Origin: Halogranum rubrum
GTDB taxonomy: Archaea; Halobacteriota; Halobacteria; Halobacteriales; Haloferacaceae
Length of the DNA stretch: 49,149 nucleotides
Direction of reading: 5' to 3'
Assembly: GCF_900114455.1 (NCBI RefSeq)
Contig: NZ_FOTC01000012.1
Span: 1-49,149, forward strand
Part shown: piece by piece, positions 7,004-26,724 of the stretch
Layout of the letters: the number at the start of each line of letters is the position of its first letter
How positions within the stretch are numbered: the first letter of the stretch is position 1
Notes under the pieces: generated by a model
Seen by the model: the letters and a program-made list of their open reading frames with translations, nothing else
Databases searched by the model: none
What the model was told of the DNA's origin: nothing
Translations under genes and position numbers: made by a program

Positions 7004-8914
7004 CTACATCCTGTGAGTGTTGTTAGGAGGTTCGTCAGACGTCTCGATTAGCTGTGCTTCTTCCTCGAGTGCAGTTACTTTGACCGGGTACGTCCCCTCA
7101 TCTTCGACCGAGACGAGTGCATGGCTATATCCACGGTCCCTGTCACCCGGCTTTGCGTTCCGAATAAACTCTGCCTCTCGGGAAGTGAGTCCAAGCTTCG
7201 CCCGGTTCTCTTCGGAGAGACCCGGGAGCCGATAGAGAATCTTCATCGAGCAGTTGTTCGCGATGGTCTCCGCTCGTGGGTGGACGAAGAAGTCCTTGAG
7301 TTCCTGTGTCACCAGATGAATGCTCAAATCATAGTGACGAGAGTGCCGTGTGGCACGGTCGAGCCACTGGAGGCTGCCTTCGTGTTCCATAAGGTAATGC
7401 GCTTCGTCGACGGCGAGGATGACGCGTTTGTCCGTCTCTTTGGCTCGCTGGTAGACGCTGTCGAAGAGCAGCTGCATCATCAACGCGATCTCACGATCGG
7501 CCTCGCCTTGCTGGAGGTCCAGATAGACGACCTTCTCATCGGAGATGTTGACTTCTGTTTCACCTGCGAGGTTCGAGAACTCGCCGTTGCCCATGAACGG
7601 ACGCATCGCCATTCGGAGATCGGCGGCACGTTCTTGCCACTTCTCGACCTCTAAGTCAGTTGGGTCGGCAGCCTCGGTGTCAACTGAATCGAGGAACACC
7701 GCTGCGTCCTCTGCAATCTCGGCGAGGATACCGATTACATCACGGATGGTTGGACTCGCATTGCCGTGTGTGGAGGGGTCCGATGTGATTCCGTTGCGGC
7801 GGTAGGCCTCTCGAACAGTGGTGCCGAGGACGGCACGCTCTTTCTTGTCGAGGCCGTTGCCGACGTGGGCAAAGAAGGTATCAAAGAAGCCCATAACGCT
7901 GCTGAAACGCTGGCTGAACGGGTCGATGTCGGGAGCGTCTCGCAGCACGTGTGTTGGTGTTTGCTTGATTTCGAGTGGGTTCAATCCTCTGGTGCCGCCG
8001 ACCACGATGTGCTCGCCATCGAGAGCGTCAGAGAGACTGCGGAAGCCCTCCAGTGGGTCGATCATGATGAGAATCGTGTCGGGGTCCTTTGCGAGTTGCC
8101 GCAGATTCAGCAACTTCGTCCCGAACGATTTTCCCGAGCCAATCTTCGCGGCGGTGAGGATGTTGTAGCCGTTCTCGCGGTCGAAGCGGTCCATGACGAC
8201 TGGGGCGTCCGTTGTCGCATGGTAGCCGACGAGTACGCCGCTTTCTTCGATGAGGGTACTTGCAGAGAACGGGAACAGTGCGCCAGCGGCTTTCCCCAAC
8301 ATCGGCGTCGTCTGTCCGAGCGTGTCTTTCGCAATTGGACTGTTGCTCACGAGCCCCTCGTCTTGCGTGTAATCGACAGACTTCGTGACGAGCCGCTTTT
8401 TCATCAGCTCCGATTGTAGGCGGTTGGTCGTCTCTTGGACTTCTTTCCGGGTGTTGCCGCGAATCGTGAGATAGACGGAGACCTCGAAGACACGCTGGGA
8501 ACCATCGGTGAGTTGGGCAAGAACTTCTTTGTGGTCCTGCAATCGGCGTTGCGTGGCGCCAAGCGAGGCCCCGCCACGCTGTTGTTTCTCTCGTCTCGTT
8601 GCATCAAGGTCGGTAATTGCTCGCTCGAACTGCTTTATCGCCTGCTCTGACTCACGCGGGCTTGCGTGAATCGAGATGTCGATATCGGCGCTCGGATGCG
8701 TTGTGAGCATATCGAGTAAGCCGGGAGTCGCTGCTGCCGGGAAATCTGCAAAGAACAGCGTCTTCGCCCAGCGCTCACCCGTCCGCGCGATGTCGGACTC
8801 GAGTTTGATGCTTGACGGGGCGACGTTCTGCGCGTGTACCCGGTTGTGATCGTCAGCAGCGTCGACGGCGTTCGCTTCGAGACTGGTGAACCGCTCGATG
8901 AGTGTCTTGAGCAT
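7004..8914 (-). CDS. VirB4-like conjugation ATPase
   Basis: The 636-aa protein has the VirB4/TraC layout: an N-terminal mixed domain (residues 30-230), then a RecA-like ATPase with Walker A AAKIGSGKSF (255-264) and Walker B VILAVDEAHYLM near residue 490. The RLPGLSEENRAKLGL segment near the C-terminus is typical of VirB4 motor domains. In type IV secretion this cytosolic ATPase drives pilus assembly and substrate transfer. The start is 2 nt from the preceding stop and the end is 2 nt from the next gene, so it sits inside a tight operon. The gene just upstream supplies a second VirB4-N-terminal-like segment. Confidence 0.88.
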   Translation of the reverse strand: MLKTLIERFTSLEANAVDAADDHNRVHAQNVAPSSIKLESDIARTGERWAKTLFFADFPAAATPGLLDMLTTHPSADIDISIHASPRESEQAIKQFERAITDLDATRREKQQRGGASLGATQRRLQDHKEVLAQLTDGSQRVFEVSVYLTIRGNTRKEVQETTNRLQSELMKKRLVTKSVDYTQDEGLVSNSPIAKDTLGQTTPMLGKAAGALFPFSASTLIEESGVLVGYHATTDAPVVMDRFDRENGYNILTAAKIGSGKSFGTKLLNLRQLAKDPDTILIMIDPLEGFRSLSDALDGEHIVVGGTRGLNPLEIKQTPTHVLRDAPDIDPFSQRFSSVMGFFDTFFAHVGNGLDKKERAVLGTTVREAYRRNGITSDPSTHGNASPTIRDVIGILAEIAEDAAVFLDSVDTEAADPTDLEVEKWQERAADLRMAMRPFMGNGEFSNLAGETEVNISDEKVVYLDLQQGEADREIALMMQLLFDSVYQRAKETDKRVILAVDEAHYLMEHEGSLQWLDRATRHSRHYDLSIHLVTQELKDFFVHPRAETIANNCSMKILYRLPGLSEENRAKLGLTSREAEFIRNAKPGDRDRGYSHALVSVEDEGTYPVKVTALEEEAQLIETSDEPPNNTHRM

Positions 8915-8916
8915 TG

Positions 8917-9966
8917 TTAGAACCTCCCCGAATCGTCGCCGATCACGACGGGGATCGAACGAATCCGCTCGTTCCGCTGTCCGGCACTCGGCCCGTAGTG
9001 TGTTCGTTCGCCACTCCAGTACTCCTCCAGTAGGGCAGAGAGTTCGTCGGCTGAGACACGCTCTGCGTCACAACCTTCGAGGTCACGAATCCCGCTCTCG
9101 ACTGCCCGGAGTCGGCGTTCGAGTTCCTCTTTCTGTCGCTCGCGAATCTCCTCGTGAGTGAGGTTGGTGCTTTCAGCTCCCAATACTCGGATACACCCAC
9201 CAATCATTGGGAGGTCACAGAGCTTTGCCAGTGCACCGCGATCAGCGAGCTGCACTTCGCGGATACTGACGGGGATGAGAATGTGATACTCGCGAACACA
9301 CGTTCCACGACTCTCGAACTCTGTGGGGAACTTCTCTCGGTAGACGCTAATGATGTCGCCGAGCGCTGGGTTCTCGACGACGTCGGGATCATCCAACCGC
9401 TTGTCGTATCCGGCTGTGATTCGTTCAGGTTCGACGGGACGGGCCGTCGAATGAATCTGTAGGTCGAAGTCAAGTGCGTTCAGCACACTGCCGAAGGAGT
9501 TGGCCATCGATTCCCACTCTTCGTCAGTCGCGAGCGAGAGGTTCGCTGGACTCACTCGGAGGGCGGCGACGAGGTCACCATCAGTACGCTCAACCAGGTT
9601 CGACACTGGCAGAATGCGCTCAACCTGTGTGAGCGAGTCAGTCTGTTTGGCAGGTGTGTCAGCGACTGCGGTTTTAGTGTGTGCTGCTCGTGAAAACATA
9701 ATCATGTCCGCCAGCCACTGCTGGGGCGATTTGTGGGAAGGTGTGATGAAGACGAATGCGGCGGTCATCAACAGAATACCACCCGCTAGGAGAATACCGA
9801 CGACGTTCAGCCACTGCGGCGTCGCAAGGAGAATGAACCCACAAACAACCCCAGCAGGGATGAACAACTTCAGATCGTTGAGACTGTAGTCGATTTCGAT
9901 ACCGAAAATCTCGTCACTCGCTCCGAACTCATCGAGAATTCGCCGAGACGGATCGCGATGGCTCAT
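8917..9966 (-). CDS. VirB3/VirB4-N-terminal-like membrane protein
   Basis: The 349-aa protein has two adjacent membrane helices at residues 30-75, the PrgI/VirB3-like arrangement. A soluble domain follows containing VERILPVSNLVERTDGDLVAALRVSP, similar to the start of the VirB4/TraC N-terminal domain. The C-terminus is charged and ends GDDSGRF. Haloarchaeal conjugation clusters often carry this part as a separate protein ahead of the VirB4 motor, which fits the order here. Its ATG overlaps the stop of the upstream gene by 4 nt (ATGA), indicating translational coupling. Confidence 0.75.
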   Translation of the reverse strand: MSHRDPSRRILDEFGASDEIFGIEIDYSLNDLKLFIPAGVVCGFILLATPQWLNVVGILLAGGILLMTAAFVFITPSHKSPQQWLADMIMFSRAAHTKTAVADTPAKQTDSLTQVERILPVSNLVERTDGDLVAALRVSPANLSLATDEEWESMANSFGSVLNALDFDLQIHSTARPVEPERITAGYDKRLDDPDVVENPALGDIISVYREKFPTEFESRGTCVREYHILIPVSIREVQLADRGALAKLCDLPMIGGCIRVLGAESTNLTHEEIRERQKEELERRLRAVESGIRDLEGCDAERVSADELSALLEEYWSGERTHYGPSAGQRNERIRSIPVVIGDDSGRF

Positions 9967-11699
9967 TCGTTCTGCCCTCGCGTGTTGAACACTGTTTCTC
10001 TGCTCTCAGCATTCTGTTGGGCGTACGAATACGGACCACCGTACCGATTACTACTCACTACGTCTCGGACATCGTAGAACTGCTCGTCGTCGGCACCTTG
10101 GAGTACAAGTGTTTCCTCTGGGAATATCTTATCGAGCCGTTCGTATCCCGTATCAAGAGTCCAGTCACGATTTGAACTCGTCCCACCAACCCCTTTGAAA
10201 TCCCCGTTCGAGAGGAAGTATCCCGTTCGGTAGTCCTGTTCACTATCCAACTCTGATCGTGCTGCAACCTCGTTCAAGGAAACACCAGAGGGAATCCGGG
10301 TATCGCTGAAGGATTCGCTCGAAGTACCAGACGAACTCGAGGTACTCGAAGCGCCCACAGCACCCATACTCGTCGTCGCCGAGGTACCACTCCGGGCAAG
10401 CCCTCTCGAGGCACTCCCCAGAGCACCAGCAGCACTTGTTCCGGTCGCGCCAACAGCGCCAGTCGAACTCGTATTATCGCTGGAGAACGGCGAACCTTGG
10501 ATCGGATCGACACGTCCACTTGCAGCTGACCCGGCAGCACTCGTGGCTGCACTACTTGCCTTCCCAACTTTACTGGAGGCACTCGCGAGACTCGTCGCCG
10601 ACACGGCACCGAGCACACCAGCGGCCATCGATGAGAACGGACGCATCGAGCGCATGCCGACGAAGAGCATGATCGGCGATAGGAGTGCAATGACCCACAA
10701 ACACAACGTCAAGAGCGCATAGACACCGAGGCCGGGCACAATCGACGCCGGGCCAGGCATGGCACTTCGAGCGGCATTGATGACGGGATAGCCGAAGCCC
10801 AACACCAACGCTGTCGGGAAGGGCAAGAACGAGACGGTGACGAACAAGTCTCGGCCAATCTTTCCAACGTTGGAGACGATGCTGAGTGGCCCGAAGTCGA
10901 CCAGTGAGAGGGCGATGAAAATCGGGAGTGCGGGGGCGAAGATGAACACCGACACCCACGAGAGCCCAAAGACGAGCGCGATCATCAGGAACAACACACC
11001 CGAAGACAACCACACGAGAATAATTCCAAGGCCGCTCGCTGCAGCATTCCCTCCGACTGACCCGAGGTCGGCGACGAGGTCAGCGCCATCAGGGGCGACG
11101 GCGAGGATCATCCCCTGTGAGAGATGTAAGATGACGGCCGCCCACATCCACGAGGCGAGGATGAAAAACAACCCGAACCACCCTTTTTGACGCAAGGTCT
11201 TGCTCCGGTGGGCCGCCGCCGACCCACCCGGGAGAATCGTCGTGAGTCGAAGGACAAGCATCCCGAAACCCCACAAGGCGAGGCCGATTGGCAAGCCCTT
11301 CGTGAACCACATGTCGTAGGCGGTGCCCATCGGGGCGTTCGTCGGGCGCTCAACGAGTTCTATCTCGCCGTCGTCCATGGGGACGGGCCGAGAGACAAGG
11401 AACTCGACGGCCCACTCGGCGACGTCGCGAGCGAACTCGAGGAAGCCTTGGGCGATTGCGCGGACGGCGTCGACGACGCCGTTACACACCTGTCCGCTCA
11501 CGGGGTCGATGCCACTACAGTAGCCTGCTTCTTCGTTCGAGTCGCCGCTTTGCTCCTCACCAGTCGGTGTCTGTTCGGGAGTCGTGCCGAGTTGCGCGTG
11601 GCTTGTCGGCGTCGCCGCCGCAGCGAGCACTGGGACGACCCCAGCACTCACAACGAGCGTCAGTGCAACCACCACTGCGAGTCGTGAGTTACGTGTCAT
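9963..11699 (-). CDS. VirB6/TrbL-like channel protein with signal peptide
   Basis: The frame stays open upstream, but the ATG at 11697-11699 gives a clean signal peptide (MTRNSRLAVVVALTLVVSAG) and was chosen as the start, giving 578 aa. After a short acidic linker with two Cys (YCSGIDPVSGQVC) there are about six membrane helices between residues 140 and 390. A long Ser/Ala/Gly/Thr-rich, probably disordered stretch (about 390-490) and a charged tail follow. Topology and length match VirB6/TrbL inner-membrane channel proteins, which share little sequence identity, so the call rests on architecture and position between the pilin-like and VirB4-like genes. Confidence 0.72.
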   Translation of the reverse strand: MTRNSRLAVVVALTLVVSAGVVPVLAAAATPTSHAQLGTTPEQTPTGEEQSGDSNEEAGYCSGIDPVSGQVCNGVVDAVRAIAQGFLEFARDVAEWAVEFLVSRPVPMDDGEIELVERPTNAPMGTAYDMWFTKGLPIGLALWGFGMLVLRLTTILPGGSAAAHRSKTLRQKGWFGLFFILASWMWAAVILHLSQGMILAVAPDGADLVADLGSVGGNAAASGLGIILVWLSSGVLFLMIALVFGLSWVSVFIFAPALPIFIALSLVDFGPLSIVSNVGKIGRDLFVTVSFLPFPTALVLGFGYPVINAARSAMPGPASIVPGLGVYALLTLCLWVIALLSPIMLFVGMRSMRPFSSMAAGVLGAVSATSLASASSKVGKASSAATSAAGSAASGRVDPIQGSPFSSDNTSSTGAVGATGTSAAGALGSASRGLARSGTSATTSMGAVGASSTSSSSGTSSESFSDTRIPSGVSLNEVAARSELDSEQDYRTGYFLSNGDFKGVGGTSSNRDWTLDTGYERLDKIFPEETLVLQGADDEQFYDVRDVVSSNRYGGPYSYAQQNAESRETVFNTRGQNE

Positions 11700-11727
11700 G
11701 GAAGGGTGAATCGTGGCGTGAGTGCCC

Positions 11728-12189
11728 TCAGAAGAAGGGGACGAGACTGATACAGTCCGAGATGGACGTTCCCGTGAAGCCGATAAACATCTCGATGACG
11801 ACGGCAAACAGCGGCGTCGTGATCGCACTTGTTGCAGCACGATTCCGCCAATTTTTGAGCGTTTGGACGGATTGAGGGTCCTTCGGGAAGGCTGCAGCCG
11901 TGTGGAGGATGTACGCGAGAATCGACGCCCCAATCATGAGCGTCCCAACAATGAGTGGGGCAGCTTGATTGATTGTCTCGGCAATCGGAGTGCCACAAAC
12001 GCCGCTACCGACACCCTCCTGAGCAGCGACGGTCGTGCTCGCCGCGACGAGAAGAGCTCCGGTAGTCACAGCGGTCTGGCAGCCGACTCTACCAATTTGT
12101 GACATGAAGTGCTGTTCACTCGATGAACAGCTGTTCGATTCTTCTAATTCGAATGTCTCAGGCAAGACAGAGGTTGATTTCTTTGACAT
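11728..12189 (-). CDS. VirB2/TrbC-like pilin precursor
   Basis: A 153-aa protein, first in the conjugation operon. An internal ATG at 12103-12105 (MSQIGRVGCQTAVTTGALL) begins a typical signal peptide ending near AQEG and is an alternative start. The longer form adds 28 polar residues, and the start at 12189 is retained because an AT-rich TATA-like stretch lies directly upstream. The mature part has two hydrophobic helices (PLIVGTLMIGASILAYIL and ITTPLFAVVIEMFIGF) separated by a short basic loop, the hairpin layout of VirB2/TrbC pilins. Two Cys (in VCGTP and SDCIS) could form a disulfide. The next gene starts 28 nt downstream. Confidence 0.7.
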   Translation of the reverse strand: MSKKSTSVLPETFELEESNSCSSSEQHFMSQIGRVGCQTAVTTGALLVAASTTVAAQEGVGSGVCGTPIAETINQAAPLIVGTLMIGASILAYILHTAAAFPKDPQSVQTLKNWRNRAATSAITTPLFAVVIEMFIGFTGTSISDCISLVPFF

Positions 12190-15401: not shown

Positions 15402-16067
15402 TTAGGCGTCGTCTCGTTCCAACCGATACTCAAATACCATATACGAGACGGTGTCCTCGCTGAACTCATTTGCCCGCACTATAGAAGCACCCCCAAGCCC
15501 GACCGTGATTATAATCATCGGTAGCAGAGCAAGTTCTGGGACCGAGAGTTTGATGATATCTGCATCGTTGAGCATGACTGAGATAACGTAGAGGAATGCC
15601 AGCAAGAACATTGCAACGCCGGTCCCTCTCATCGCGAGATATAGTGCTTGTAGCCGGAGGGTCCGATTTCGCGAAGTTGACTCTAGTTGAGCAAGAATCA
15701 TCTTGTATATTCTCTTCCATGCATCATAGTTTGCATCAAGTTCGAAATCTTCTCGAACGTTTTCAACAAACTTGATGTCCATCGGAGTTGTTTCATACTC
15801 TGACTCTTCCTCTTCCGTGATTTGGCGCATCCGAGTCTCAAAGGCATCGCTGCCGCTAATTACGTATCCCCCAATCGTCTGAAGAAATTGTCCTGATGCG
15901 AAAGCCAGTATTACCCAAACGACCAAGTTCCCGATCTTCAGTTCGGTGGTGACGATGCCGCTGCCAACGTACGGTATCATCACCCCAATTAAAAATAATG
16001 CACCAGGAAAGAAGCTCGAGAAAATATCATATAAGTTGAACTGCGCAAATCCCTGCTGTCCCTCCAT
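15402..16067 (-). CDS. Hypothetical four-helix membrane protein
   Basis: A 221-aa protein with four hydrophobic segments: residues 17-37 (FPGALFLIGVMIPYVGSGI), 45-70 (GNLVVWVILAFASGQFLQTIGGYV), about 150-170 (GTGVAMFLLAFLYVISVML) and 178-195 (ELALLPMIIITVGLGGASIV). The central cytoplasmic loop (75-140) is charged. Pairs of helices around a soluble loop are seen in several bacterial phage-defence membrane proteins, but nothing here proves such a role. The upstream neighbour, a PadR-like regulator on the same strand, may control it. Confidence 0.7.
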   Translation of the reverse strand: MEGQQGFAQFNLYDIFSSFFPGALFLIGVMIPYVGSGIVTTELKIGNLVVWVILAFASGQFLQTIGGYVISGSDAFETRMRQITEEEESEYETTPMDIKFVENVREDFELDANYDAWKRIYKMILAQLESTSRNRTLRLQALYLAMRGTGVAMFLLAFLYVISVMLNDADIIKLSVPELALLPMIIITVGLGGASIVRANEFSEDTVSYMVFEYRLERDDA

Positions 16068-16543: not shown

Positions 16544-16781
16544 TTTAGGTGACGGAATGATAAATTCCTATGGTTCAAAGACCGACATATCTATTAGTGA
16601 ATAATAATCGTGGTTGACAGTAGGGTATAAGGGAAACTGCATGTCTGTTCGATGACCGAAGAACACATCACTGGTGACGACGAGTCCGTGATGACAGACC
16701 CCGCGTCCTGCAGTACGAAGCTGCTAACAGCGACCAGGGTGGCTTTGTGTGGCACCGTCGCCGAGTGACAGACTCGTGAGC

Positions 16782-16877
16782 AACGCTGTCGACACCCACA
16801 TGTTTTGGCGTCGTGAGGAGACACCCAGCTAGTAGCGACAGCGTTGACACCCGACGTGAGCGAGGCGATGGACACCC
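16782..16877. repeat. GACACCC iteron-like array with inverted repeat
   Basis: Four copies of GACACCC occur at 16791-16797, 16820-16826, 16846-16852 and 16871-16877, spaced 29, 26 and 25 bp. The first and third are each preceded by the arms of a perfect 10-bp inverted repeat, AACGCTGTCG (16782-16791) and CGACAGCGTT (16836-16845). The arrangement resembles an initiator or recombinase site. It sits in a 390-bp stretch without an intact gene, beside a broken gene. Confidence 0.5.
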
Positions 16878-16933
16878 GACTGCACGTCGCCAAGATGGGG
16901 AGATGACTGCCAAGTGTCCTCTTAACAGGCTGC

Positions 16934-17320
16934 TTACGCGAGTAACGCGTTGAGTTCTTCGAGCGCTGCGGCGTCGTACCCACGGATGTCGTAGCGATTT
17001 GCGCTGGCGCGCTCTGTGTAGATGTCGATGATTGCGAGATCGACGAGCAGTGTGAGTAGGCGGCCGAAGGTCCGTGACGGGATGGGTGGGGCTTCGAGGT
17101 GGGTGTACAGTTGCCGGCCCGTTGGGTAGGGGCGGGTGGCGTCGTCGAGTGCTGTCTGGAGGAGTGGGAGGTACCGTTGGAGGGTGCTGTAGTGTTGTGG
17201 GGAGCGGGCTTCAAGCGCCTCGAGTCAGGTGGTGAGCGACGACGCCATCAGTGGGTTGCTAGTGAGTCGTGCGGTGAGGGGGTTCGATGTCTGGTGTTCA
17301 GTGGAGTCCTCACCAATATG
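16934..17320 (-). pseudogene. Broken gene with in-frame TGA
   Basis: The minus strand between 17320 and 16934 reads as a continuous protein-like sequence interrupted once by TGA at 17225-17227, and it lacks a start codon. The downstream part is convincingly coding: LEALEARSPQHYSTLQRYLPLLQ, PTGRQLYTHLEAPPIP, GRLLTLLVDLAIIDIYTE and NRYDIRGYD, ending at TAA. The pattern suggests the C-terminal winged helix of a haloarchaeal plasmid regulator. The upstream part (NPLTARLTSNPLMASSLTT) fits the same protein. Loss of the start and the stop codon together argue for a remnant rather than a sequencing error, though the latter cannot be excluded. Confidence 0.6.
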
Positions 17321-17332
17321 TCACAGTATCTC

Positions 17333-19807
17333 CTACTCTGCATCCTCTTCGGGAACCTTCATCATCTGCTCCAAAATAACGTCTGGGTGTTGGAACAGCT
17401 CGAATTCCTGTTCACCGCGGTCATAATCCACCATCCCGGTAGAGACAGCTACCGCTTCGATAACGTTTGCAACCTTCTGTTTCTCGATTCCCCTCTCCAG
17501 AATATTCTCATCTCCTAACACCATCCCGATAGCAGGCTTGTTAACCGGGTTTTTTGTCTGGGCGTCCCAACCAATATCCAAGATTTCTCTCATTAAGCCG
17601 GGCTCTGGCGTTTCCTGCCATATTTCTCCAACGTAATCGACCAGTTCGTCAGGGTGTTGGTCATTGGTGAGTATGTCTACGATTTGTTGGTGGGTAAACC
17701 GACGTCGTTTGTGTAACCGGAGCAGTTTCTCCATGGCTTCGTTAGTCAGTAGAGATGCGCTACCATCCATTTCCCGTAGAAGAGCGCTATCCTTGCCGTA
17801 TTTCCCATCCAACTGGAACTCTCGTGCAATCACAACGGCATGATCACACTCTGCTTCTTCTTTATGACGGGTGACTGTCGCCTCTTTCGCATCCTCGTGA
17901 TTCACGATGCCTTTCGAGCCCTTTGCTTCCATACAGAAGCGAAGGTTCTTGGAACCTGCTTGTGGTATCGTTAGAACCCCATCTGGTCGATCAGAAGCTC
18001 CCTCGTGTCGAGCAGATACGTTGATTTGCCGGAATACGTCGACAATCACCTCTTCATACCGCGACCCGCCCTCGAGAGAAGCATCATGAATCTCGTTGAT
18101 GTAGTACTCAATCTCATCTCGAATGTAACCAGCAGCACTACGCAGTGCATCGTCGGAAACCTCTTTGGAGATGTCTAACAGTTCTTGTTCGACACCGTGG
18201 TACTCCAGATACCCAGAGGCAAGCAGATTCCCAGCGACTGCTTCTCCAAACACTTGTTTGAATTCGTTGGACATCTTGTTACTCTCTTCGAGTGCTTTGA
18301 ACAGAGGATGTGATTCGTTGATAAAAATGGTTTGATCGTCCGAAGAATAGTACGTGATCTCATCAGATTCGTCATAAGAGCTGAATTTGACGTCGATGGA
18401 GCCAAGACCACCCTCAGGAAATCCATCGCTGGATAGTCCTCTGAGTCCTTGTGTCGCATCGAATGGAGCCAAAGTATTAAGTCGGGTTCCGAACGTACGC
18501 ACCGATTGTTCGTCTTCCTCAATCTCCTCCAGTTTCTGCTGGTCTAATCGGTTGGCCTTTCGACGGCAGTAATTGAACAACGCTTGAATTACCTCTCTTA
18601 CGAGATGTGTCTCGATGTGTTCCTCAGAGACCTGATTACGTTGAACAAGAATTGCATCGTCAAGGTCCGGTACCTCAATTTCCGCTAGAAAACGACCAAA
18701 GTCGCCGTGAGGTGGGTTGTCAAGTCCGAATAGCGGGTCTTCACGATTGACCAACTTTCCTTTCACGGTAATGCGGAACCCGTGATCTTTGAGACCTCTC
18801 TTCTTCCGTTTCCCCTTCGTTAAGAGATCTTCGTAGTAGGTTGCCTTCCCCGTGATCGGTCCTAATTCGGGGACTTCGAGTGCACGAACGTCCTCCTTAA
18901 CGTTATCATACTGGCTTGTTTCCCCGACACTGCACTCATACTTGCTCTCGGGTACGTCGTCCATGTTGTCGTGCTCGTCTCGTTCTTTCCAGAACGACTG
19001 GAGTCGGTTCTCGATTTCCCCTCGGACGTCCTCTTCCAAGAGATCAGCAGTGAAGCGTTCGTCAGTATCTGGTTCCCTTCTCGAGATTTTGCTGTTGTCC
19101 AGGGATACCTGGAACTGAGCAGAGAGAGGTATTGAGGTGCGAATCATCTGGTGAAGATACTGGGGTTGCAACGCCTTCCCAGTGTACTGTTCTTCGATGT
19201 CGTCGACGATGGCTAGGGTCCAAGAATCCCAGTCTTTCTCCCATGGGTTGGGAAGGTTTTTCTCTTCGAAGTACCCAGCAACTACATCTTGAGCCTCATT
19301 CAGCCCCATCTTGTGAACATTGAAGCTGGGAGGATTCCCATCATCCCGTTCCTTTATTTCTTCTTCTGAAACAGACACAATACGAACAGTACCATTCTTT
19401 GCTGCGATGTGTGTCAGTTTCCGCCCTAACGCAAATGCAGCGAGTTTCCCTACACCAAATTTGCCGATTTGCTGGCGGCCATGCTTCACTCGGTCTTCAT
19501 CTTCCTGATTGGCTTTAGGGCTCTTTGCCACACTCCAGAGCCACTCAAATCCACCCATATCCATAGAGGAGCCGTCGTCGAGAACAGCTAGATAGTCAGA
19601 CTCCGACTCAGGAGTGTTAATGTGGCATTCGCTTGCACCAGCGTCGTAGCTATTGCAAACGAGTTCTTCCACAGCTTTCCGTGGGTTCGTGTAAAGCTGT
19701 GATGAGACTTGTCGGATGATTTGGTAGCTAACGTCGACCTCGATCGACTTATCTTCTTGTTTACCTCTAGATACAAAATCGTCCTCCAAATCACGGGCAG
19801 TAGACAT
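17333..19807 (-). CDS. GHKL ATPase fused to a PD-(D/E)XK nuclease domain
   Basis: An 824-aa protein. The N-terminus is a GHKL (Hsp90/MutL/histidine-kinase type) ATPase: N-box AVEELVCNSYDAGAS (E48, N52), G1 box VLDDGSSMD (D77, G79) and G2 box GKFGVGKLAAF (115-125). A middle region (200-550) has no clear motif. Residues 585-665 carry a restriction-endonuclease core: RYEEVIVDVF, then RPDG (D609) and CMEAKGS (E627-A-K629), followed by a conserved-looking helix and CDHAVVIA. The fusion suggests an ATP-gated clamp that cuts DNA. It is divergent from the helicase-led operon across 102 bp, so both probably belong to one defence system. Codon use and base composition look less GC-rich than the conjugation operon. 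Confidence 0.85.
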   Translation of the reverse strand: MSTARDLEDDFVSRGKQEDKSIEVDVSYQIIRQVSSQLYTNPRKAVEELVCNSYDAGASECHINTPESESDYLAVLDDGSSMDMGGFEWLWSVAKSPKANQEDEDRVKHGRQQIGKFGVGKLAAFALGRKLTHIAAKNGTVRIVSVSEEEIKERDDGNPPSFNVHKMGLNEAQDVVAGYFEEKNLPNPWEKDWDSWTLAIVDDIEEQYTGKALQPQYLHQMIRTSIPLSAQFQVSLDNSKISRREPDTDERFTADLLEEDVRGEIENRLQSFWKERDEHDNMDDVPESKYECSVGETSQYDNVKEDVRALEVPELGPITGKATYYEDLLTKGKRKKRGLKDHGFRITVKGKLVNREDPLFGLDNPPHGDFGRFLAEIEVPDLDDAILVQRNQVSEEHIETHLVREVIQALFNYCRRKANRLDQQKLEEIEEDEQSVRTFGTRLNTLAPFDATQGLRGLSSDGFPEGGLGSIDVKFSSYDESDEITYYSSDDQTIFINESHPLFKALEESNKMSNEFKQVFGEAVAGNLLASGYLEYHGVEQELLDISKEVSDDALRSAAGYIRDEIEYYINEIHDASLEGGSRYEEVIVDVFRQINVSARHEGASDRPDGVLTIPQAGSKNLRFCMEAKGSKGIVNHEDAKEATVTRHKEEAECDHAVVIAREFQLDGKYGKDSALLREMDGSASLLTNEAMEKLLRLHKRRRFTHQQIVDILTNDQHPDELVDYVGEIWQETPEPGLMREILDIGWDAQTKNPVNKPAIGMVLGDENILERGIEKQKVANVIEAVAVSTGMVDYDRGEQEFELFQHPDVILEQMMKVPEEDAE

Positions 19808-19909
19808 GCTGATACCAATAAATTCTGGCCTATTTAAATTTGTGAGAAGTAATCCAATTTAGCCAACAACACGCTTAACTCGCCTCCGAAACCAGTTCTG
19901 CCAACAGCG
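19808..19909. promoter_or_regulatory. Divergent promoter of the defence island
   Basis: TATTTAAATT at 19831-19840 is a good haloarchaeal TATA box about 27 nt before the leftward GHKL gene, implying a very short or absent leader. For the rightward gene, TTAACT near 19875-19880 lies about 30 nt before the ATG. The two promoters share about 100 bp, which allows joint control. Confidence 0.5.
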
Positions 19910-21958
19910 ATGGCTTCCGACGGTACTACATTCGAATCCCTCGATCTCCCTCGTGTCCTCAACACGTCGACCACTGATTTTGTCGAAGAGTTCTATCAGC
20001 CTCTTTTGTCGCGTTCTGTCGAGTACAAACGGGGTGTTGGGTTCTTCACAACAAACTGGATAAAATCGGCAGCGAGAGGTATTGCAGAGCTGGCAAACAA
20101 CGACGGAACTGCCAAGTGGATTACTAGCCCCAAGCTCACCGAAGAAGACTGGGAAGCCATTAAGAAAGGCGAGGAGGCGCGTAGCGACGAAGTACTTAGA
20201 GACACCCTCCAGCAGACAATCACCAACTTACGTTTTGACCTCGAATACGACACGCGGAACGCTGTCGCTTGGATGATTGCTGACGGACTCCTCGAAATCA
20301 AGCTAGCCGTTCCAACCGAATCACTTTCTGGTGGCGACTTCCACGACAAGTTCGGTATCTTCTACGACACAGATGGCAACCGAGTTGCGTTCCATGGGTC
20401 CCAGAACGATAGCCAGCAGGCTCTACGGAACTACGAGGCTTACAGTGTTGATTGTGATTGGCTCGGTGAACGAGACGCAGAAGGCGTCGATACTCATGAA
20501 CTGCGCTTCGATGATCTTTGGAATGGACGGGACCCAAACGTCAATACGTACACTATTCCGGAAGGAGTAGCAGAGGATATCGCTGAACTCCGAGACTACG
20601 ACAACCGTCCATACGATACCCCGTTCGACAACCTAGACGACCCAGCCAACGGGGAGAAAGCGGGTCCAGAAATCACGCTCCGTGACTACCAACGCGAGGC
20701 CGTGGATAGTTGGTTCGAGAACGACTGCATCGGGCTCTTTCGGATGGCCACTGGCACGGGCAAAACGTTCACCGCTCTCGCGGCTCTCAACGAATATATC
20801 GACCAACACGACGGACCCGTTCTCTGCGTAATCGCTGTCCCAGTTACCCACCTCGCCACACAGTGGGCCGAAGAAATGGAGATATTCGGCCTCAAATCAC
20901 CGCGATTCCTCTTCGGCACAGCGAACAGCGACTGGAAAAGCGATCTCTCTCGGGTTGTGTCGAATATCAAGCTCGGGATTCGGGACCACGATATCGTCAT
21001 TACCACCCACAAAACCCTTAGTGAGGAGTACTTCCGCGAGAAGGTCAGTAGCATAGATGGCGATGTCATTCTTCTCGGCGACGAGGTCCACGGGCTCGGG
21101 TCGGAGGAGCAACGAAAGGGGCTCCTCGAGAACTACACTGCTCGCATTGGTCTCTCAGCAACACCAGAACGTCACTACGACGAAGAAGGCACAGAGTTCC
21201 TCTTGGACTACTTCGGCGGGACTGTGTACGAGTACACCCTCAGCGACGCGATTCCCGAATATCTCACTCCCTACGAATATGATCCGATCATTGTAGAGAT
21301 GACGGAAGACGAGTTAGAGGAGTATCGGGAAGAGTCTCGAAAGCTAGCAACTGCTGCTGGTAGTGACGATGTCGAGGACGAAATCGTGGAGAGGCTTGCA
21401 ATGAAGCGTGCTGCGATTGTCAAGGGCGCCGAGAACAAGTATCGGCATCTAAGACGCCTGCTCCAGAAGATGAACAACCCGGACCATCTCCTGGTATACA
21501 CAAACCCGAAACAGATTGACACTGTCCAACAAATTCTTAACGAAGAAGGCATCGTCCATCACAAGTTCACCTACGAGGAGGACGAAGAGACGCGTAAAGA
21601 GCTGCTTGAGGGATTTGATGAGGGCCGGTGGGACGCATTGGTGGCGATGAAGTGTTTGGACGAGGGTGTCGACGTCCCGGCGACTAGGCAAGCAATCCTG
21701 ATGAGCAACAGTGGAAACCCGATGCAGTTCATCCAGCGACGTGGACGTGTTCTTCGGCAATCTGAGGGGAAAGACAAGGCGACGATTTACGACATGGTCG
21801 TGGTGCCGTGGTTACACCCGCCCGAGGAGATCGGGACGTCGGAGCAGAACCTGCTCAAAAAAGAACTGGATCGATTTTCGGAGTTCGCTGAGAACGCAAA
21901 GAACCGTCACACCGCCTTAAACGTCATCGACAGCATCCGAGTAAAATACCGGATATAG
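19910..21958 (+). CDS. SF2 helicase with N-terminal phospholipase-D nuclease domain
   Basis: A 682-aa protein. Residues 25-200 form a PLD-like domain with one HKD-type site: FHDKFGIF (H145, K147) followed by HGSQN (S164, N166). Family members of this type dimerise or pair two half-sites to cleave phosphodiesters. Residues 255-680 are a superfamily-2 helicase: LRDYQREAV, Walker A MATGTGKT (279-286), GDEVHG (DExH, 389-394), LSATPER (415-421) and QRRGRVLR in motif VI. PLD-SF2 fusions are typical of restriction and DNA-repair loci. It is the first gene of the operon, and the next gene begins 68 bp downstream. Translocation coupled to strand cleavage is the likely activity. Confidence 0.88.
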   Translation: MASDGTTFESLDLPRVLNTSTTDFVEEFYQPLLSRSVEYKRGVGFFTTNWIKSAARGIAELANNDGTAKWITSPKLTEEDWEAIKKGEEARSDEVLRDTLQQTITNLRFDLEYDTRNAVAWMIADGLLEIKLAVPTESLSGGDFHDKFGIFYDTDGNRVAFHGSQNDSQQALRNYEAYSVDCDWLGERDAEGVDTHELRFDDLWNGRDPNVNTYTIPEGVAEDIAELRDYDNRPYDTPFDNLDDPANGEKAGPEITLRDYQREAVDSWFENDCIGLFRMATGTGKTFTALAALNEYIDQHDGPVLCVIAVPVTHLATQWAEEMEIFGLKSPRFLFGTANSDWKSDLSRVVSNIKLGIRDHDIVITTHKTLSEEYFREKVSSIDGDVILLGDEVHGLGSEEQRKGLLENYTARIGLSATPERHYDEEGTEFLLDYFGGTVYEYTLSDAIPEYLTPYEYDPIIVEMTEDELEEYREESRKLATAAGSDDVEDEIVERLAMKRAAIVKGAENKYRHLRRLLQKMNNPDHLLVYTNPKQIDTVQQILNEEGIVHHKFTYEEDEETRKELLEGFDEGRWDALVAMKCLDEGVDVPATRQAILMSNSGNPMQFIQRRGRVLRQSEGKDKATIYDMVVVPWLHPPEEIGTSEQNLLKKELDRFSEFAENAKNRHTALNVIDSIRVKYRI

Positions 21959-22026: not shown

Positions 22027-22230
22027 ATGAAGGACTCGGAGGTACACTCGCTCATCCTCGACCAAACGGATGAGATCGAGGAAGACGACTATCGCTCTTT
22101 TATTCGGGAGATTCTGAAGCACGAGCGGACGAAACTAGACCAGGATCGTCCGAAGTATGCGGAAAAGTACCGATCGCTAATCGATTCGTATGCTACTAAC
22201 GAAAGTCTTGGTGACTACGCTGACGAATGA
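22027..22230 (+). CDS. Small acidic helical protein in the defence operon
   Basis: A 67-aa protein, rich in Asp, Glu, Lys and Tyr and predicted to be mostly helical (DDYRSFIREILKHERTKL, KYAEKYRSLIDSYA). No family is recognised. Its stop overlaps the start of the SMC-like gene by 4 nt (ATGA), so the two are translationally coupled. A small partner subunit of the SMC-like ATPase is the simplest guess. Confidence 0.7.
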   Translation: MKDSEVHSLILDQTDEIEEDDYRSFIREILKHERTKLDQDRPKYAEKYRSLIDSYATNESLGDYADE

Positions 22231-24200
22231 ATAACATTCAGATCTTCGACATAGAGCTCAAAAACTACCGTCAATACCGAGGTATCGAGGAGATTGACCT
22301 CGCAACAACTCCGGACAAACACATCAATGTCATCGAGGGGCAGAACGGGTCGGGGAAATCTAACCTGCTGAATGCAATTACGCTTTGTTTCTACGACAAA
22401 GAACCTCATATCGACAACCAAGACAACCAGGGGTTAGGTGCCGATCCCTTAGTCAATCTCAAGGAACTAAGACAAATCGATGTGGGCGAGGCCGTACGTG
22501 GGTATATCGAGATTACTCTCGGGAAGCAGGAACCCCAGTACGTATTTACCCGAAAATTCCGAACCGCGAAAGTCGATGAGGACGAGTACAGCAGCGTCAC
22601 TGACGACCTCCAGCTCCGACAACGATTCGGTCCGGATTGGCAAAACGTCGACAACCCCAACATCCGGCTCCGAGAAATCCTACCGACACACGTCCACCAA
22701 TACTTCCTATTCGACGGCGAGCAGCTCGACCAGTTCTTCGAAGAAGGGTACACTGAGCGTGTGCAAGACGCCGTTCTCGACGTCTCTCATATTCAACTGC
22801 TGGAACGAGCAGTAGACCATCTCAAGTCGGTTCAGAAAGACCTCGAGAAGGAAGCCTCGGATGTCGAGGGGACGCCTCAAGACTTGCACGATGAGTACGA
22901 GGAAGCCCAAGAAACGCTTGAGGAGCTTGAGGAAGAAGAGAAGATACTCGAGGGGAACATCAGCGATGCGAACGAGGAGATAGAGGGTATCGACGAGGAG
23001 CTATCTGACAGTACCAACCCAGATGTTCGTGAGAAGCAGCAGCGTCGACGCTACTTGAACGAGCGCCTCGAGGACCGGAAGGAGGAGCTCCAGAACGCTC
23101 GTGAAGACGCCGCTGTGGCACTCGCTCGCGCGGGGCCAGTTGCATACAACAAAGATGCCTTGGAGTTCACGCTTGATCGGTTCCGCGAATGGGAGACCAG
23201 CGGTCAAGAACCACCAGATATCCCCGAGTGGTGGCTCGAACAGCTGCTCGAGAAGGGCAGATGTATCTGTGGGACCGACATCGAAACTGAGCAAGAGAAA
23301 CGTCGGCATCTCGAAGAATTCAAACAAACCGTTGCTGAGACAGCGACGCAGAGTGCCAACGGGAAGCGGAAGGTAGAGCGCGCGCTTGAGCGTGCAGATG
23401 ACATGGTCGATGTAGCGAAAGAACGGAAGGGACGCGTTGAGGACATCCGAGACGACATCGACGAAATCAATGAAGAACTGCGCGAAATCTCTGCTGAGTT
23501 GGAAAGTAAGAACATCCCGGACGACGTCGATGTGGCCGACCTCGAGAAACAGCGCAAGCGAATCGACGCTCGCATTAAGGACATGCGCGAGGAGCTCGGG
23601 CAACTTCGCGGGAAAATCGAGCAACAAAGCGAGGAAGTCGAAGAGCGCAGGAATAAGTGGAAACGAGAAGTGGAAAAGGAGAAGAAACACGATCAGCTTC
23701 TTCGGAAGATTCGTTTCGTTGAGAACGCCCGGGGCAAGGTAGAGAGTATCGAGACCAAGATTCTTGAGCAGGTCCGCGACGAGACAGAGACCTCACTTGA
23801 ACAGTACTTCAACGACCTCATCTGGAAGGACGAGCACTACGACATCGAGCTCACTGAGGACTACGAAGTGCGCGTTTACGGCCCGTCTGGAGAGAAAAAG
23901 CTCGGGTCGTTGTCGGCAGGTGAGCGGCAAGTGCTCGCGCTGTCGTTCATGTCGGGGCTTTCGAAGATTAGCGGGTTCTCTGCACCAGTTGTTATCGACA
24001 CTCCACTGGGGCGGATTTCGAGTAAACCGAAACGAAGAATCGCACAGAACGTCCCGAACTATCTGGAAAATAGCCAGGTGACGTTCCTAATGACCGACGA
24101 AGAATACACAAGCGAGGTCAAAGCCTTCCTACAGAATGATGTCGCCCACGAATACCATCTGGAGTACACTGATGAGGTAACGAAGGTGACGACAGAATGA
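22227..24200 (+). CDS. DndD-like SMC/Rad50-type ATPase
   Basis: A 657-aa protein with split ABC-type ATPase halves and long coiled coils. Walker A is GQNGSGKSN (38-46). Residues 200-300 and 370-510 are coiled coil, joined by a hinge containing RCICGTDIE, a CxCG hook reminiscent of the Rad50 zinc hook. The C-terminal half holds the ABC signature LSAGERQVLALS and Walker B PVVIDTPLGRIS, then FLMTDEEY. The DndD family acts in phosphorothioate-linked restriction, but no DndC (PAPS-reductase-like) gene is present here, so the protein probably serves a different DNA-sensing machine. Both ends overlap neighbouring genes by 4 nt. Confidence 0.85.
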   Translation: MNNIQIFDIELKNYRQYRGIEEIDLATTPDKHINVIEGQNGSGKSNLLNAITLCFYDKEPHIDNQDNQGLGADPLVNLKELRQIDVGEAVRGYIEITLGKQEPQYVFTRKFRTAKVDEDEYSSVTDDLQLRQRFGPDWQNVDNPNIRLREILPTHVHQYFLFDGEQLDQFFEEGYTERVQDAVLDVSHIQLLERAVDHLKSVQKDLEKEASDVEGTPQDLHDEYEEAQETLEELEEEEKILEGNISDANEEIEGIDEELSDSTNPDVREKQQRRRYLNERLEDRKEELQNAREDAAVALARAGPVAYNKDALEFTLDRFREWETSGQEPPDIPEWWLEQLLEKGRCICGTDIETEQEKRRHLEEFKQTVAETATQSANGKRKVERALERADDMVDVAKERKGRVEDIRDDIDEINEELREISAELESKNIPDDVDVADLEKQRKRIDARIKDMREELGQLRGKIEQQSEEVEERRNKWKREVEKEKKHDQLLRKIRFVENARGKVESIETKILEQVRDETETSLEQYFNDLIWKDEHYDIELTEDYEVRVYGPSGEKKLGSLSAGERQVLALSFMSGLSKISGFSAPVVIDTPLGRISSKPKRRIAQNVPNYLENSQVTFLMTDEEYTSEVKAFLQNDVAHEYHLEYTDEVTKVTTE

Positions 24201-24637
24201 GCGAGCAAAAATCCCACAAGTATGAGGAGTCCGAGCCGCGGCGTGACGTTCACATTGAGAAATCGAAGCGCAGTCTGTACGAGGACCTACGAACCAAAGA
24301 GACCTCGCCGTTCTACGACGTCGAGCTGCACGATCTGTTCTTGTTCGCCGTAAGTTACGGTCGTAAGAAGGCCGGACGAGTCGAGCTTGAGGGGAAGGAG
24401 CATGCGCTGTTCGGTCGGTCCTCTGCACTCCGTGAAGAGCAAGAGGGTATCATCGAGGCAGTTGCGGTGCGAGAAGAGCGTACTCTCGATGTTTTGCAGG
24501 ATAAGCGCCTCGTCTACACTATCGCTGAGGAATACGCGAATGGCGGAATTGACAAATTGCATGGACGGGTATTCGGGCCCGAAGATGATGCACTGAGTGA
24601 ACTAACGATAGAAGTCGTTGGAGAGTATGAAGGATAA
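24197..24637 (+). CDS. Uncharacterised protein coupled to the DndD-like ATPase
   Basis: A 146-aa protein overlapping the SMC-like gene by 4 nt. It reads LYEDLRTKETSPFYDVELHDLFLFAVSYGRKKAGR, then a polar middle, then VYTIAEEYANGGIDKL. The 'hydrophobic FxFAxxxG' segment followed by an EEYANGGI helix near the end recalls small accessory proteins next to DndD-type ATPases (the DndE position), but the sequence is not one I can assign. It may dock on the ATPase or on DNA. Spacing to the methyltransferase gene is 75 bp. Confidence 0.7.
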   Translation: MSEQKSHKYEESEPRRDVHIEKSKRSLYEDLRTKETSPFYDVELHDLFLFAVSYGRKKAGRVELEGKEHALFGRSSALREEQEGIIEAVAVREERTLDVLQDKRLVYTIAEEYANGGIDKLHGRVFGPEDDALSELTIEVVGEYEG

Positions 24638-24712: not shown

Positions 24713-26122
24713 ATGAGCCAAAATGAATTCGAAAACCAAGAGGAGCCGTTGACTATGGAGCGGCTCGACCCTGGAGTCCGAAAGCTTATCTCTATCATTA
24801 GCGAGCATATTGACGACGTCGACAACGTCTCCAGCCTCGACGAGTTCCTGGACGGAACCCACCAGCCGAAGGAACCGAGCACGCCGGACGTCTACAACTT
24901 TCTCTCTTCAAATCCGGATGTCGCCAAGAAACTCCACGGTGCAATCAAAGACGAGTTAGAGCACCATGGGAGTGTTACCGCTGAGGACATTCGGGCACAA
25001 CACGATGAGCGTCCCGATGTTGACGAACTGAAGGCGAAGGTTGAGCACGCGAATGCTCGCTACGTCATCCCGTCTGACGCTGACAAAGACGCCGACACTG
25101 AGAACTCCAAACGACTGGAAATCGAATCTGAATCAGTCGATCTTATAATAACGTCGCCGCCTTACTGGCGGAAGCGCAACTACGGCGTCGACGACCAGCT
25201 CGGTCAGGAGTCGGATCCAGACCAGTACATTGAGAACCTCGTCAAGGCGCTCGAGCACTGGCGCGCGTTCCTGCGCCCACACGGGTCGATATTCCTCAAT
25301 ATCGGCGACAGCTACAACAACAAGAGTCGTGTTGGAATTCCTGGCCGGTTCGTCCGTGCTGCGCAGGAAGCTGGTTGGACGATTCGTAACGACATCATCT
25401 GGGCAAAAGACAATGGCATGCCGTCCCCGGCAAAGGACCGACTGGTTCCACGCCATGAGCATATCATCCATCTCGTGTGGGATGCTGACGACTACTACTA
25501 CGACCTCCACGGATACGCCGAGGTCTTCGGGAACGGCTCGAATCCGGGAGACGTCTGGCGAATGAACCATGACCGCAACACCGGTGGACACCTCGCACCA
25601 TACCCGGAGGAACTGGTTCGGAGAGCGATCACGCTCGCTTGTCCGCACTCAGTGTGTACGAAGTGTGGTGTGGCGCGTGAGCGCAATCGGGTGAGAGGGA
25701 CGACCGAGTTGGACACGAGTCGGCCACAGGCTGAGCGAGCCCTTGAGCTGTATAATCAGTCCGATCTCGAAGAGCGACATATCAAGGCGGTTCAGGCGGT
25801 TGGGATTTCTGACGCTGGCAAGGCGAAGGAATTCCAGGATGGTGCGGGTGAGAACGCCAAAGACGTCCAAGAGCTAGCGAAGGAAGCGAAAGAGGTGCTA
25901 GGCGGTTACTTTAGAGAGTTTACGTTCCCTCAGTGGATTACTGAGGGATGGACTGAGTGCGACTGCGAGGAACCGGAGTATGGGCCTGGAATGGTGTTCG
26001 ACCCGTTCAGCGGCTCCGGAACCACCATCAAGGTCGCTAACGAACTGGGGCTCCATGCGTGGGGAACAGACCTCGATACCTCCAACTTCGACAAGAATCA
26101 GTCACTGTCACAGTATCAATAA
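24713..26122 (+). CDS. Class beta DNA methyltransferase (N4-cytosine or N6-adenine)
   Basis: A 469-aa protein. The first 130 residues are a helical extension with a possible winged helix (HHGSVTAEDIRAQHDE). The catalytic motif TSPPYW (148-153) comes first and the SAM-binding motif FDPFSGSGTT comes near the end, followed by WGTDLD. This order is that of beta-class enzymes. TSPPYW is typical of N4-cytosine enzymes, though some N6-adenine enzymes share it. A Cys pair (CPHSVCTKCG) and a later CDCEEP probably bind zinc. No recognition sequence can be read from the protein. Within this operon it is likely the self-marking subunit. Its TAA overlaps the next ATG by one base. Confidence 0.88.
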   Translation: MSQNEFENQEEPLTMERLDPGVRKLISIISEHIDDVDNVSSLDEFLDGTHQPKEPSTPDVYNFLSSNPDVAKKLHGAIKDELEHHGSVTAEDIRAQHDERPDVDELKAKVEHANARYVIPSDADKDADTENSKRLEIESESVDLIITSPPYWRKRNYGVDDQLGQESDPDQYIENLVKALEHWRAFLRPHGSIFLNIGDSYNNKSRVGIPGRFVRAAQEAGWTIRNDIIWAKDNGMPSPAKDRLVPRHEHIIHLVWDADDYYYDLHGYAEVFGNGSNPGDVWRMNHDRNTGGHLAPYPEELVRRAITLACPHSVCTKCGVARERNRVRGTTELDTSRPQAERALELYNQSDLEERHIKAVQAVGISDAGKAKEFQDGAGENAKDVQELAKEAKEVLGGYFREFTFPQWITEGWTECDCEEPEYGPGMVFDPFSGSGTTIKVANELGLHAWGTDLDTSNFDKNQSLSQYQ

Positions 26123-26724
26123 TGACTCAGTACGTCCTGAAACCCGAAGTAGTCAAAGATTGCTTTTGGCGGCTCGTTGAGTCGTCTATACACAGGCTCT
26201 TCCCCGGGTATCTGTGTCTTCAGCAGCAGTCCAATCTCGACGGGAGAACGATGGGTCTGTCGTTCCCATACAACGATTTCTTCGACACGTACTTTCGGGT
26301 TCTCGACGGTGACAAACCGTACCTAGTTCCCTTTACACAGGCAGAGAATCCAGCAGACGCTACACTGTGGTTCAACGCGAACGTAGCTGGGACGTATGCA
26401 CCATCGTCACTCAGAGCGAAATCACCGCTGATGCAAGTAGCGACCCTTGAAGAGGGCGGTCACAACTCGAAGTGGGGATTAGGTGATGAGCACTGGAAAC
26501 TTGCGCGCCATCACATATGTGACGGCGAGCAAATCCCTGTAGAGTCCGTCGCGGCGTACTTGTTCCGAGACTTCGCGTTTCAGACCGATGACCCGTCAGC
26601 GTATACGGTCGTATCTGCGTATACTGAGGAGTTTGGGTACGATCTTGGTGGGTCAGCATTCGCGCATCTGTACGAAACGGGCGACTCGAATATTACTGCG
26701 GAGAGCTTCGAAGAATATGAGTGA
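26122..26724 (+). CDS. Uncharacterised protein of the defence operon
   Basis: The ATG at 26122-26124 overlaps the methyltransferase stop (TAATG) and is preferred to an upstream in-frame start that would run into that gene. The 200-aa product is alpha/beta in appearance, with motifs FPGYLCLQQQSN, GLSFPYNDFFDTYFRV, HNSKWGLGDEHWKLARHHICDG and FGYDLGG. No catalytic signature is recognised. The DxxW/HWKLARHH segment, rich in His and Asp, could bind metal. Translation is coupled on both sides, so it belongs to the same complex or pathway. Confidence 0.7.
   Translation: MTQYVLKPEVVKDCFWRLVESSIHRLFPGYLCLQQQSNLDGRTMGLSFPYNDFFDTYFRVLDGDKPYLVPFTQAENPADATLWFNANVAGTYAPSSLRAKSPLMQVATLEEGGHNSKWGLGDEHWKLARHHICDGEQIPVESVAAYLFRDFAFQTDDPSAYTVVSAYTEEFGYDLGGSAFAHLYETGDSNITAESFEEYE

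What the first reader, a model, noticed from the sequence alone, without database searches (positions are those of the whole stretch)
17333..19807. Hsp90-like GHKL ATPase fused to a PD-ExK nuclease
N-box, G1 and G2 motifs lie in the first 125 residues. A restriction-like RPDG...CMEAKGS site lies at 608-631 of the same 824-aa protein. ATP-gated clamping (as in MutL or topoisomerase VI) coupled directly to a nuclease would make this the likely effector of the island.
Basis: partly seen in the sequence, partly recalled or inferred. Interest (0 to 1): 0.68.

Follow-up and report, generated by a model that had tools for sequence, protein, structure and literature searches.

The report
ATP-gated restriction enzyme beside Pbe system
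A salt-loving archaeon carries, on a mobile element, a DNA-cutting enzyme fused to an ATP-driven clamp; it belongs to a family that travels with DNA-methylating genes in archaea and bacteria, so it is most likely a restriction enzyme, here next to a second antiviral system that may share the same methylase.

Summary
The N-terminal GHKL domain is secure: Pfam E=1.6e-16, a fold like MORC2/MORC3/Hsp90, ATP motifs invariant in 19 of 19 relatives. Residues 560-720 model confidently (pLDDT 86) and match FokI (E=6.5e-7) and HindIII. E585 and K629 are kept in 18 of 19 relatives, D609 as Asp in 17, residue 627 acidic in 18; one relative is clearly dead.
The family spans haloarchaea, other archaea, bacteria and viral contigs. 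All 18 relatives with readable flanks lie near a DNA methyltransferase, often as a two-gene M-R operon. It is therefore most likely an ATP-gated, type II-like restriction enzyme. In the window it sits divergently beside PbeABCD plus an N4/N6 methyltransferase. Six close Pbe-methyltransferase loci lack it, so it is an optional module, not the island's sole effector. GHKL-nuclease restriction enzymes (HgiDII/BbrUII), paraMORC3 and a GHKL-Shedu are already known, so this is a new variant of a known kind. Sharing one methylase with PbeABCD is inferred, not shown.

The parts
17333..19807 (-). GHKL ATPase - PD-(D/E)xK nuclease fusion, 824 aa ('GHKL1')
18758..19807 (-). residues 1-350: GHKL domain plus S5-like transducer; E48 at 19664-19666, N52 at 19652-19654
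   Evidence: PF13589; Foldseek MORC2/MORC3/Hsp90; motifs invariant in 19 relatives
17648..18130 (-). residues 560-720: PD-(D/E)xK nuclease; E585 at 18053-18055, D609 at 17981-17983, E627 at 17927-17929, K629 at 17921-17923
   Evidence: model; FokI/HindIII fold match; conservation; Mrr_cat hit in a relative
19808..19909 (.). 102-bp divergent intergenic region between GHKL1 and PbeA (coordinates from the ORFs; no promoter tested)
19910..21958 (+). PbeA (SF2 helicase; HKD fusion according to PMC10853773)
   Evidence: PADLOC PbeA 5.6e-235; Pfam ResIII/Helicase_C
22027..22230 (+). PbeB-like small acidic protein, 67 aa
   Evidence: position and 79% identity to the same gene in the Halovivax cassette
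22227..24200 (+). PbeC, DndD-like/CxC ABC ATPase
   Evidence: PADLOC PbeC, E=0
24197..24637 (+). PbeD / DndE-cognate, 146 aa
   Evidence: NCBIfam dnd_assoc_4 1e-9, below cut-off; position
24713..26122 (+). N4/N6 DNA methyltransferase (TSPPYW then DPFSGSG; probably N4-cytosine, inferred from the motif)
   Evidence: PF01555 3.3e-37; PADLOC MTase_II 5.6e-120; motifs
26122..26724 (+). ~200-aa conserved partner of the methyltransferase ('MT200'), no known domain
   Evidence: same gene in L037, L049, L050, L051, L052, L036
26717..27199 (+). cytidine-deaminase-like protein, ~160 aa
   Evidence: PF00383 6e-6; NCBIfam cytidine deaminase 2.5e-12, below cut-off; start set by homology

Best explanation
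GHKL1 is the restriction subunit of a type II-like, ATP-dependent R-M pair. It is expected to dimerise through the ATP-bound GHKL/S5 module, as MutL, MORC and Hsp90 do, and to close on DNA. ATP-driven closure would position two C-terminal FokI/HindIII-like PD-(D/E)xK domains to cut unmodified DNA. A linked DNA methyltransferase would protect the host's own sites. In the window the linked methyltransferase is the one in the PbeABCD operon, so GHKL1 and PbeABCD would be two restriction modules using one methyl mark. Shown here: the domain folds by model, active-site conservation, and linkage to methyltransferases. Inferred: dimerisation, ATP gating, cutting, the methyl signal, and the sharing of the mark.
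For: GHKL motifs and nuclease residues are co-conserved across archaea, bacteria and viral contigs. Folds: MORC2/MORC3/Hsp90 for the whole model, FokI/HindIII for residues 560-720. Methyltransferase linkage: 18 of 18 relatives with readable flanks have a methyltransferase nearby, of at least four kinds: the window type, permuted N4/N6, gamma N6, and C5. In L101, L103, L104, L045 and L096 the two reading frames overlap or touch; in L102, L032, L033 and L098 they lie within about 60 bp. The window-type methyltransferase accompanies GHKL1 in two separate branches of the GHKL1 tree: window/Halovivax and Halorubrum/Salarchaeum (same split). Co-occurrence in 391 genomes: p=3e-6, or 5e-5 without the near-duplicate (counts). 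The Halorubrum genome G292 has only one N6_N4 methyltransferase at E below 1e-8 and it is in this locus; G000 has two. G000 has no dndC, so its Pbe module cannot rest on its own Dnd phosphorothioation. The best named NCBIfam model is the BbrUII/HgiDII restriction enzyme family.
Against: The usual partner, a methyltransferase in direct operon, is replaced in the window by a methyltransferase about 5 kb away on the other strand. That methyltransferase also occurs with PbeABCD and no GHKL1 in six genomes, so it need not be GHKL1's partner. No cleavage, methylation or ATPase data exist for this family. One relative (Halorubrum lipolyticum) has lost the nuclease site yet keeps the ATPase motifs. 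Sequence specificity could not be located.
Confidence: 0.68

Rival explanations
1. GHKL1 is an added effector of PbeABCD: the Pbe helicase and CxC ABC-ATPase/DndE complex senses unmodified invader DNA and recruits or triggers the GHKL-nuclease, making one composite defence system.
For: GHKL1 lies at the PbeA end of the cassette in both orientations, in two separate GHKL1 branches. Related Pbe loci carry a GHKL domain fused to an N6_N4 methyltransferase. Published paraMORC/MORC neighbourhoods often include an SF2 helicase (PMC2292703).
Against: PbeABCD + methyltransferase occurs without GHKL1 in six genomes, and GHKL1 occurs with a methyltransferase and no Pbe in most other members. PbeABCD-DndCDEA works without any such gene (PMC6459918).
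Confidence: 0.15
2. GHKL1 is a methylation-independent nuclease triggered by an invader feature such as a DNA end or a phage protein, like the GHKL-Shedu protein VcSduA; its closeness to methyltransferases only reflects clustering in defence islands.
For: VcSduA has the same order, GHKL then PD-(D/E)xK, and both sites are needed for defence (PMC12137116). The window lies on an element with conjugation genes.
Against: No Shedu domain in GHKL1 (E up to 10; relatives). Overlapping or near-touching M-R gene pairs in other archaea, bacteria and viral contigs argue for a specific partnership.
Confidence: 0.12
3. GHKL1 is a DNA remodeller whose C-terminal domain does not cut, or only nicks, more like MORC.
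For: Closest full-length folds are MORC2/MORC3; one relative has a degenerate nuclease site.
Against: Catalytic residues are kept in 17-18 of 19 members over very large divergence.
Confidence: 0.05

Closest known systems
BbrUII/HgiDII family type II restriction enzymes (NCBIfam NF050001)
   Same: N-terminal GHKL domain; C-terminal D...ExK in the Rhizobium member read here; gene beside a DNA methyltransferase
   Different: GHKL1 aligns only over residues 25-245 and scores 52.8 bits against a cut-off of 550; it is longer; its nuclease end is of another subgroup (FokI/HindIII/Mrr_cat-like); partners are mostly N4/N6 methyltransferases, whereas the HgiDII-type genes read here sit by C5 methyltransferases
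paraMORC3 (Iyer, Abhiman and Aravind 2008, PMC2292703)
   Same: GHKL + S5 + C-terminal restriction-fold domain with E-D-ExK, in R-M neighbourhoods
   Different: paraMORC3 was described mainly in proteobacteria and Bacteroidetes, a subset standalone, and was later equated with Shedu-domain proteins (PMC12137116); no reference alignment was available to place GHKL1 in it
VcSduA, GHKL-Shedu of Vibrio cholerae (PMC12137116)
   Same: GHKL ATPase followed by a PD-(D/E)xK nuclease in one chain; both sites essential for phage defence
   Different: nuclease is DUF4263/SduA_C, not found here; acts as a single gene, without a methyltransferase
PbeABCD / CxC ABC ATPase-DndE systems (PMC6459918, PMC10853773)
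   Same: neighbouring operon in the window; methylase-coupled forms already reported, including permuted N4-cytosine methylases
   Different: no GHKL gene is reported with it there (no 'GHKL', 'MORC' or 'Hsp90' in PMC10853773)
MORC ATPases / MutL
   Same: predicted ATP-dependent GHKL-S5 clamp
   Different: a PD-(D/E)xK nuclease in the same chain, in place of chromatin-reader domains (MORC) or the MutL C-terminal nuclease

Membership tests
GHKL ATPase superfamily | N-box ExxN, DxG, GxGxxG motifs in a Bergerat fold | tested here: met
   PF13589 above cut-off; motifs 19/19; fold matches
PD-(D/E)xK nucleases | alpha-beta restriction fold with D...[ED]xK on the core strands | tested here: met
   H581-594, E598-601, E610-614, E622-629, H642-651, E656-661 in the model; FokI and HindIII top hits
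BbrUII/HgiDII restriction enzymes (NF050001) | full-length model score of at least 550 bits | tested here: not met
   52.8 bits, residues 25-245 only; the Rhizobium control scores 830
BbrUII/HgiDII restriction enzymes (NF050001) | GHKL + PD-ExK chain encoded beside a methyltransferase | tested here: met
paraMORC3 | C-terminal RE-fold domain with E-D-ExK after GHKL-S5 | tested here: met
   E585, D609, E627, K629; fold
paraMORC3 | sequence placement with the published paraMORC3 set | not testable with these tools
   no paraMORC3 reference sequences could be fetched by name
Prokaryotic MORC | GhXhhpXXRhl motif in the S5 domain | tested here: inconclusive
   residues 343-353 GFRITVKGKLV; relatives GFFVYVRDRMI and GFFVMVRGRLV come closer but lack the polar position (K or R at 351 in 19/19)
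Shedu | SduA_C/DUF4263 nuclease domain (PF14082) | tested here: not met
   no hit for P0001 at E up to 10, nor in four relatives at E up to 0.1
Type II R-M system | restriction gene genetically coupled to a modification methyltransferase | tested here: met
   18 of 18 assessable relatives; in the window the methyltransferase is about 5 kb away
Type II R-M system | cuts at or near a fixed site, blocked by the cognate methylation | not testable with these tools
   needs biochemistry and a methylome
PbeABCD system component | constant presence with pbeABCD | tested here: not met
   absent from G128, G039, G384, G119, G220, G102

The most novel reading that the evidence does not exclude
GHKL ATPases and PbeABCD form one class of methyl-directed defence: the GHKL module, either fused to the nuclease (window) or fused to the methyltransferase (Halorubrum-type loci), works as an ATP clamp in the same complex as the CxC ABC-ATPase/DndE and PbeA, with GHKL1 as an added cutting arm.
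Probability: 0.17. Interest if true: 0.62.

Novelty: new variant of a known kind. Interest (0 to 1): 0.42.

Why it matters
It defines a family of ATP-clamp restriction enzymes with no full-length model in the libraries searched, spanning archaea and bacteria with several methyltransferase classes, and so a testable set for how GHKL clamps gate nucleases. The window pairing also bears on an open question: what PbeABCD uses as its self mark when phosphorothioation genes are absent, and whether two restriction modules can share one methylase.

Tried and rejected
The first genome-contig scan with the single protein found nothing; the alignment query worked. Hsp90 or MutL proper rejected: only the N-terminal part aligns by sequence. 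Weak GHKL hits in about 58 haloarchaeal genomes cover only the N-terminal part, are other GHKL proteins, and were not counted. ORF 16594-17214(-) was taken as spurious (2% acidic residues in an acidic proteome). The methyltransferase of the L101 type was not found in G000, G071, G292, G344 or G221, but that search had no positive control. G363 could not be judged (fragmented contigs). L100 (contig end) was left out of the methyltransferase count. Methyltransferase calls in L096-L098 and L101-L104 rest on motifs read from the sequence, not on a family search. The permuted character of the L032/L033 methyltransferases is read from the Pfam match positions. The tree flags long branches; the split between the window and Halorubrum branches was read and agrees.

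Full report
What is there. The ORF at 17333-19807 is on the minus strand and encodes 824 residues. It is divergent from PbeA with 102 bp between the two start codons.

ATPase. Pfam HATPase_c_3 covers 42-157 at E=1.6e-16. In an alignment of 19 relatives from haloarchaea, other archaea of the phylum, two bacteria and three viral contigs, the N-box, DxG and GxGxxG residues and T197 never vary. The full model (pLDDT 77.8, pTM 0.45) matches MORC2 and MORC3 ATPase modules first, with TRAP1/Hsp90 among the top hits, at E around 1e-10. The low pTM and a poorly modelled ATP-lid stretch (95-117) mean that the domain arrangement should not be trusted; the fold assignment can be.

Nuclease. The letter pattern alone is weak evidence: a loose version occurs five times in the window's larger ORFs. 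The domain 560-720 alone gives a confident model (pLDDT 85.6, pTM 0.83). Foldseek places it with FokI (E=6.5e-7, probability 1.00, TM 0.68) and HindIII (3.7e-5, TM 0.70), then more weakly with MspJI, EcoT38I, BamHI and Holliday-junction resolvases, all of the same fold class. E585, D609, E627 and K629 make the E-D-(E/D)xK set. E585 and K629 are kept in 18 of 19, and position 627 is acidic in 18 of 19. D609 is Asp in 17; the other two have Glu, one of them the dead relative. That relative (Halorubrum lipolyticum) lacks the site. A gammaproteobacterial relative hits Mrr_cat above its cut-off.

Neighbours. PADLOC names PbeA and PbeC at overwhelming scores. They are followed by a DndE-cognate, an N4/N6 methyltransferase, a ~200-aa partner and a deaminase-like gene, with overlapping or near-touching frames. 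The literature calls this the CxC ABC ATPase-DndE system, with PbeA an HKD nuclease-helicase, and notes methylase-coupled forms, including permuted N4-cytosine methylases (PMC10853773). PbeABCD was first described with DndCDEA phosphorothioation and reported not to cleave viral DNA (PMC6459918). The window's genome has no dndC, so here the methyltransferase is the plausible mark.

Who travels with whom. Halovivax asiaticus has the same cassette, with the proteins checked 71-84% identical. Two Halorubrum-genus genomes (G292, G344; one is H. salsamenti) have GHKL1, PbeABCD and methyltransferase all in one direction. Six genomes have PbeABCD with the same methyltransferase family and no GHKL1 (G128, G039, G384, G119, G220, G102). 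Salarchaeum japonicum has GHKL1 with that methyltransferase family and a second, unrelated GHKL-like gene but no Pbe genes there. In other haloarchaea GHKL1 sits beside a different methyltransferase: permuted N4/N6 (G120, G049), gamma N6 (G194) or C5 (G299, L044). In four other archaea (L101-L104), a gammaproteobacterium, Kribbella and three viral contigs it is next to a methyltransferase, often overlapping it, with a Vsr-like gene in one case. That is 18 of 18 members with readable flanks. The window and Halorubrum/Salarchaeum GHKL1 proteins fall in separate branches, so the pairing with the window-type methyltransferase either arose twice or survived while other branches swapped methyltransferases.

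Mechanism. The most likely reading is a restriction enzyme whose GHKL dimer closes on ATP and brings two nuclease domains onto DNA, with methylation marking self. Support from the literature: VcSduA loses defence when either the GHKL or the nuclease site is mutated (PMC12137116). That GHKL-nuclease chains act as type II enzymes rests on the HgiDII/BbrUII family name in NCBIfam and on general knowledge. What is not shown: cutting, ATP gating, the recognition site, and that the window's methyltransferase protects against GHKL1 rather than only against PbeABCD.

Novelty. GHKL-nuclease fusions in R-M settings were predicted in 2008 (PMC2292703), and type II and Shedu forms are known. GHKL1 fails the HgiDII/BbrUII full-length model and the Shedu domain test, and no library searched holds a full-length model of it. 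It is a new variant of a known kind. The unusual part is its recurrent placement beside methylase-coupled PbeABCD, together with GHKL-methyltransferase fusions in sister Pbe loci.

Noticed in passing
L062:11860-14799, L064:12152-15058, L065:1481-4408, L066:16445-19363 (similar gene in L063:3020-5926): Proteins of 968-979 aa fusing an N-terminal GHKL domain to an N6_N4 methyltransferase, in haloarchaeal PbeABCD loci that lack the window-type methyltransferase. Pfam was run on L062, L064 and L065; L066 by BLAST similarity.
   Followed up: partly
L052:11078-13141, L055:11984-14083 (similar in L056:2072-4051): The deaminase-like gene of the Pbe-methyltransferase operon is fused to a DNA gyrase A C-terminal beta-propeller (5-6 repeats, E about 1e-57) in some genomes.
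   Followed up: partly
L036:1218-4084, L053:5687-8499, L054:10409-13365: A two-gene module (685-aa weakly GHKL-like protein + 247-aa protein) takes the place of PbeABCD in front of the same methyltransferase family.
   Followed up: partly
L034:8690-11209: Halorubrum lipolyticum GHKL1 relative with intact ATPase motifs but lost nuclease residues, beside a gamma N6 methyltransferase and a KAP NTPase resembling QatA.
   Followed up: no
L065:11565-14144: In one Pbe locus a divergent 859-aa HNH protein occupies the position that GHKL1 has in the window, suggesting exchangeable nucleases at this spot.
   Followed up: no
window 7004-8914, 9963-11933, 43581-44846: TraG-like P-loop, TrbL/VirB6-like and Orc1/Cdc6 genes: the 49-kb contig looks like a conjugative plasmid or integrative element; its ends do not overlap exactly.
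   Followed up: no
window 15402-16067 (-): Hydrophobic 221-aa protein, several probable membrane segments, with a weak PADLOC Csx27 match (3e-5), downstream of a TrmB/PadR-like winged-helix gene.
   Followed up: no
L096, L097, L098 (IMG/VR contigs): GHKL1 relatives lie on contigs catalogued as viral, each followed by a methyltransferase or by Vsr-like and C5-methyltransferase genes.
   Followed up: partly
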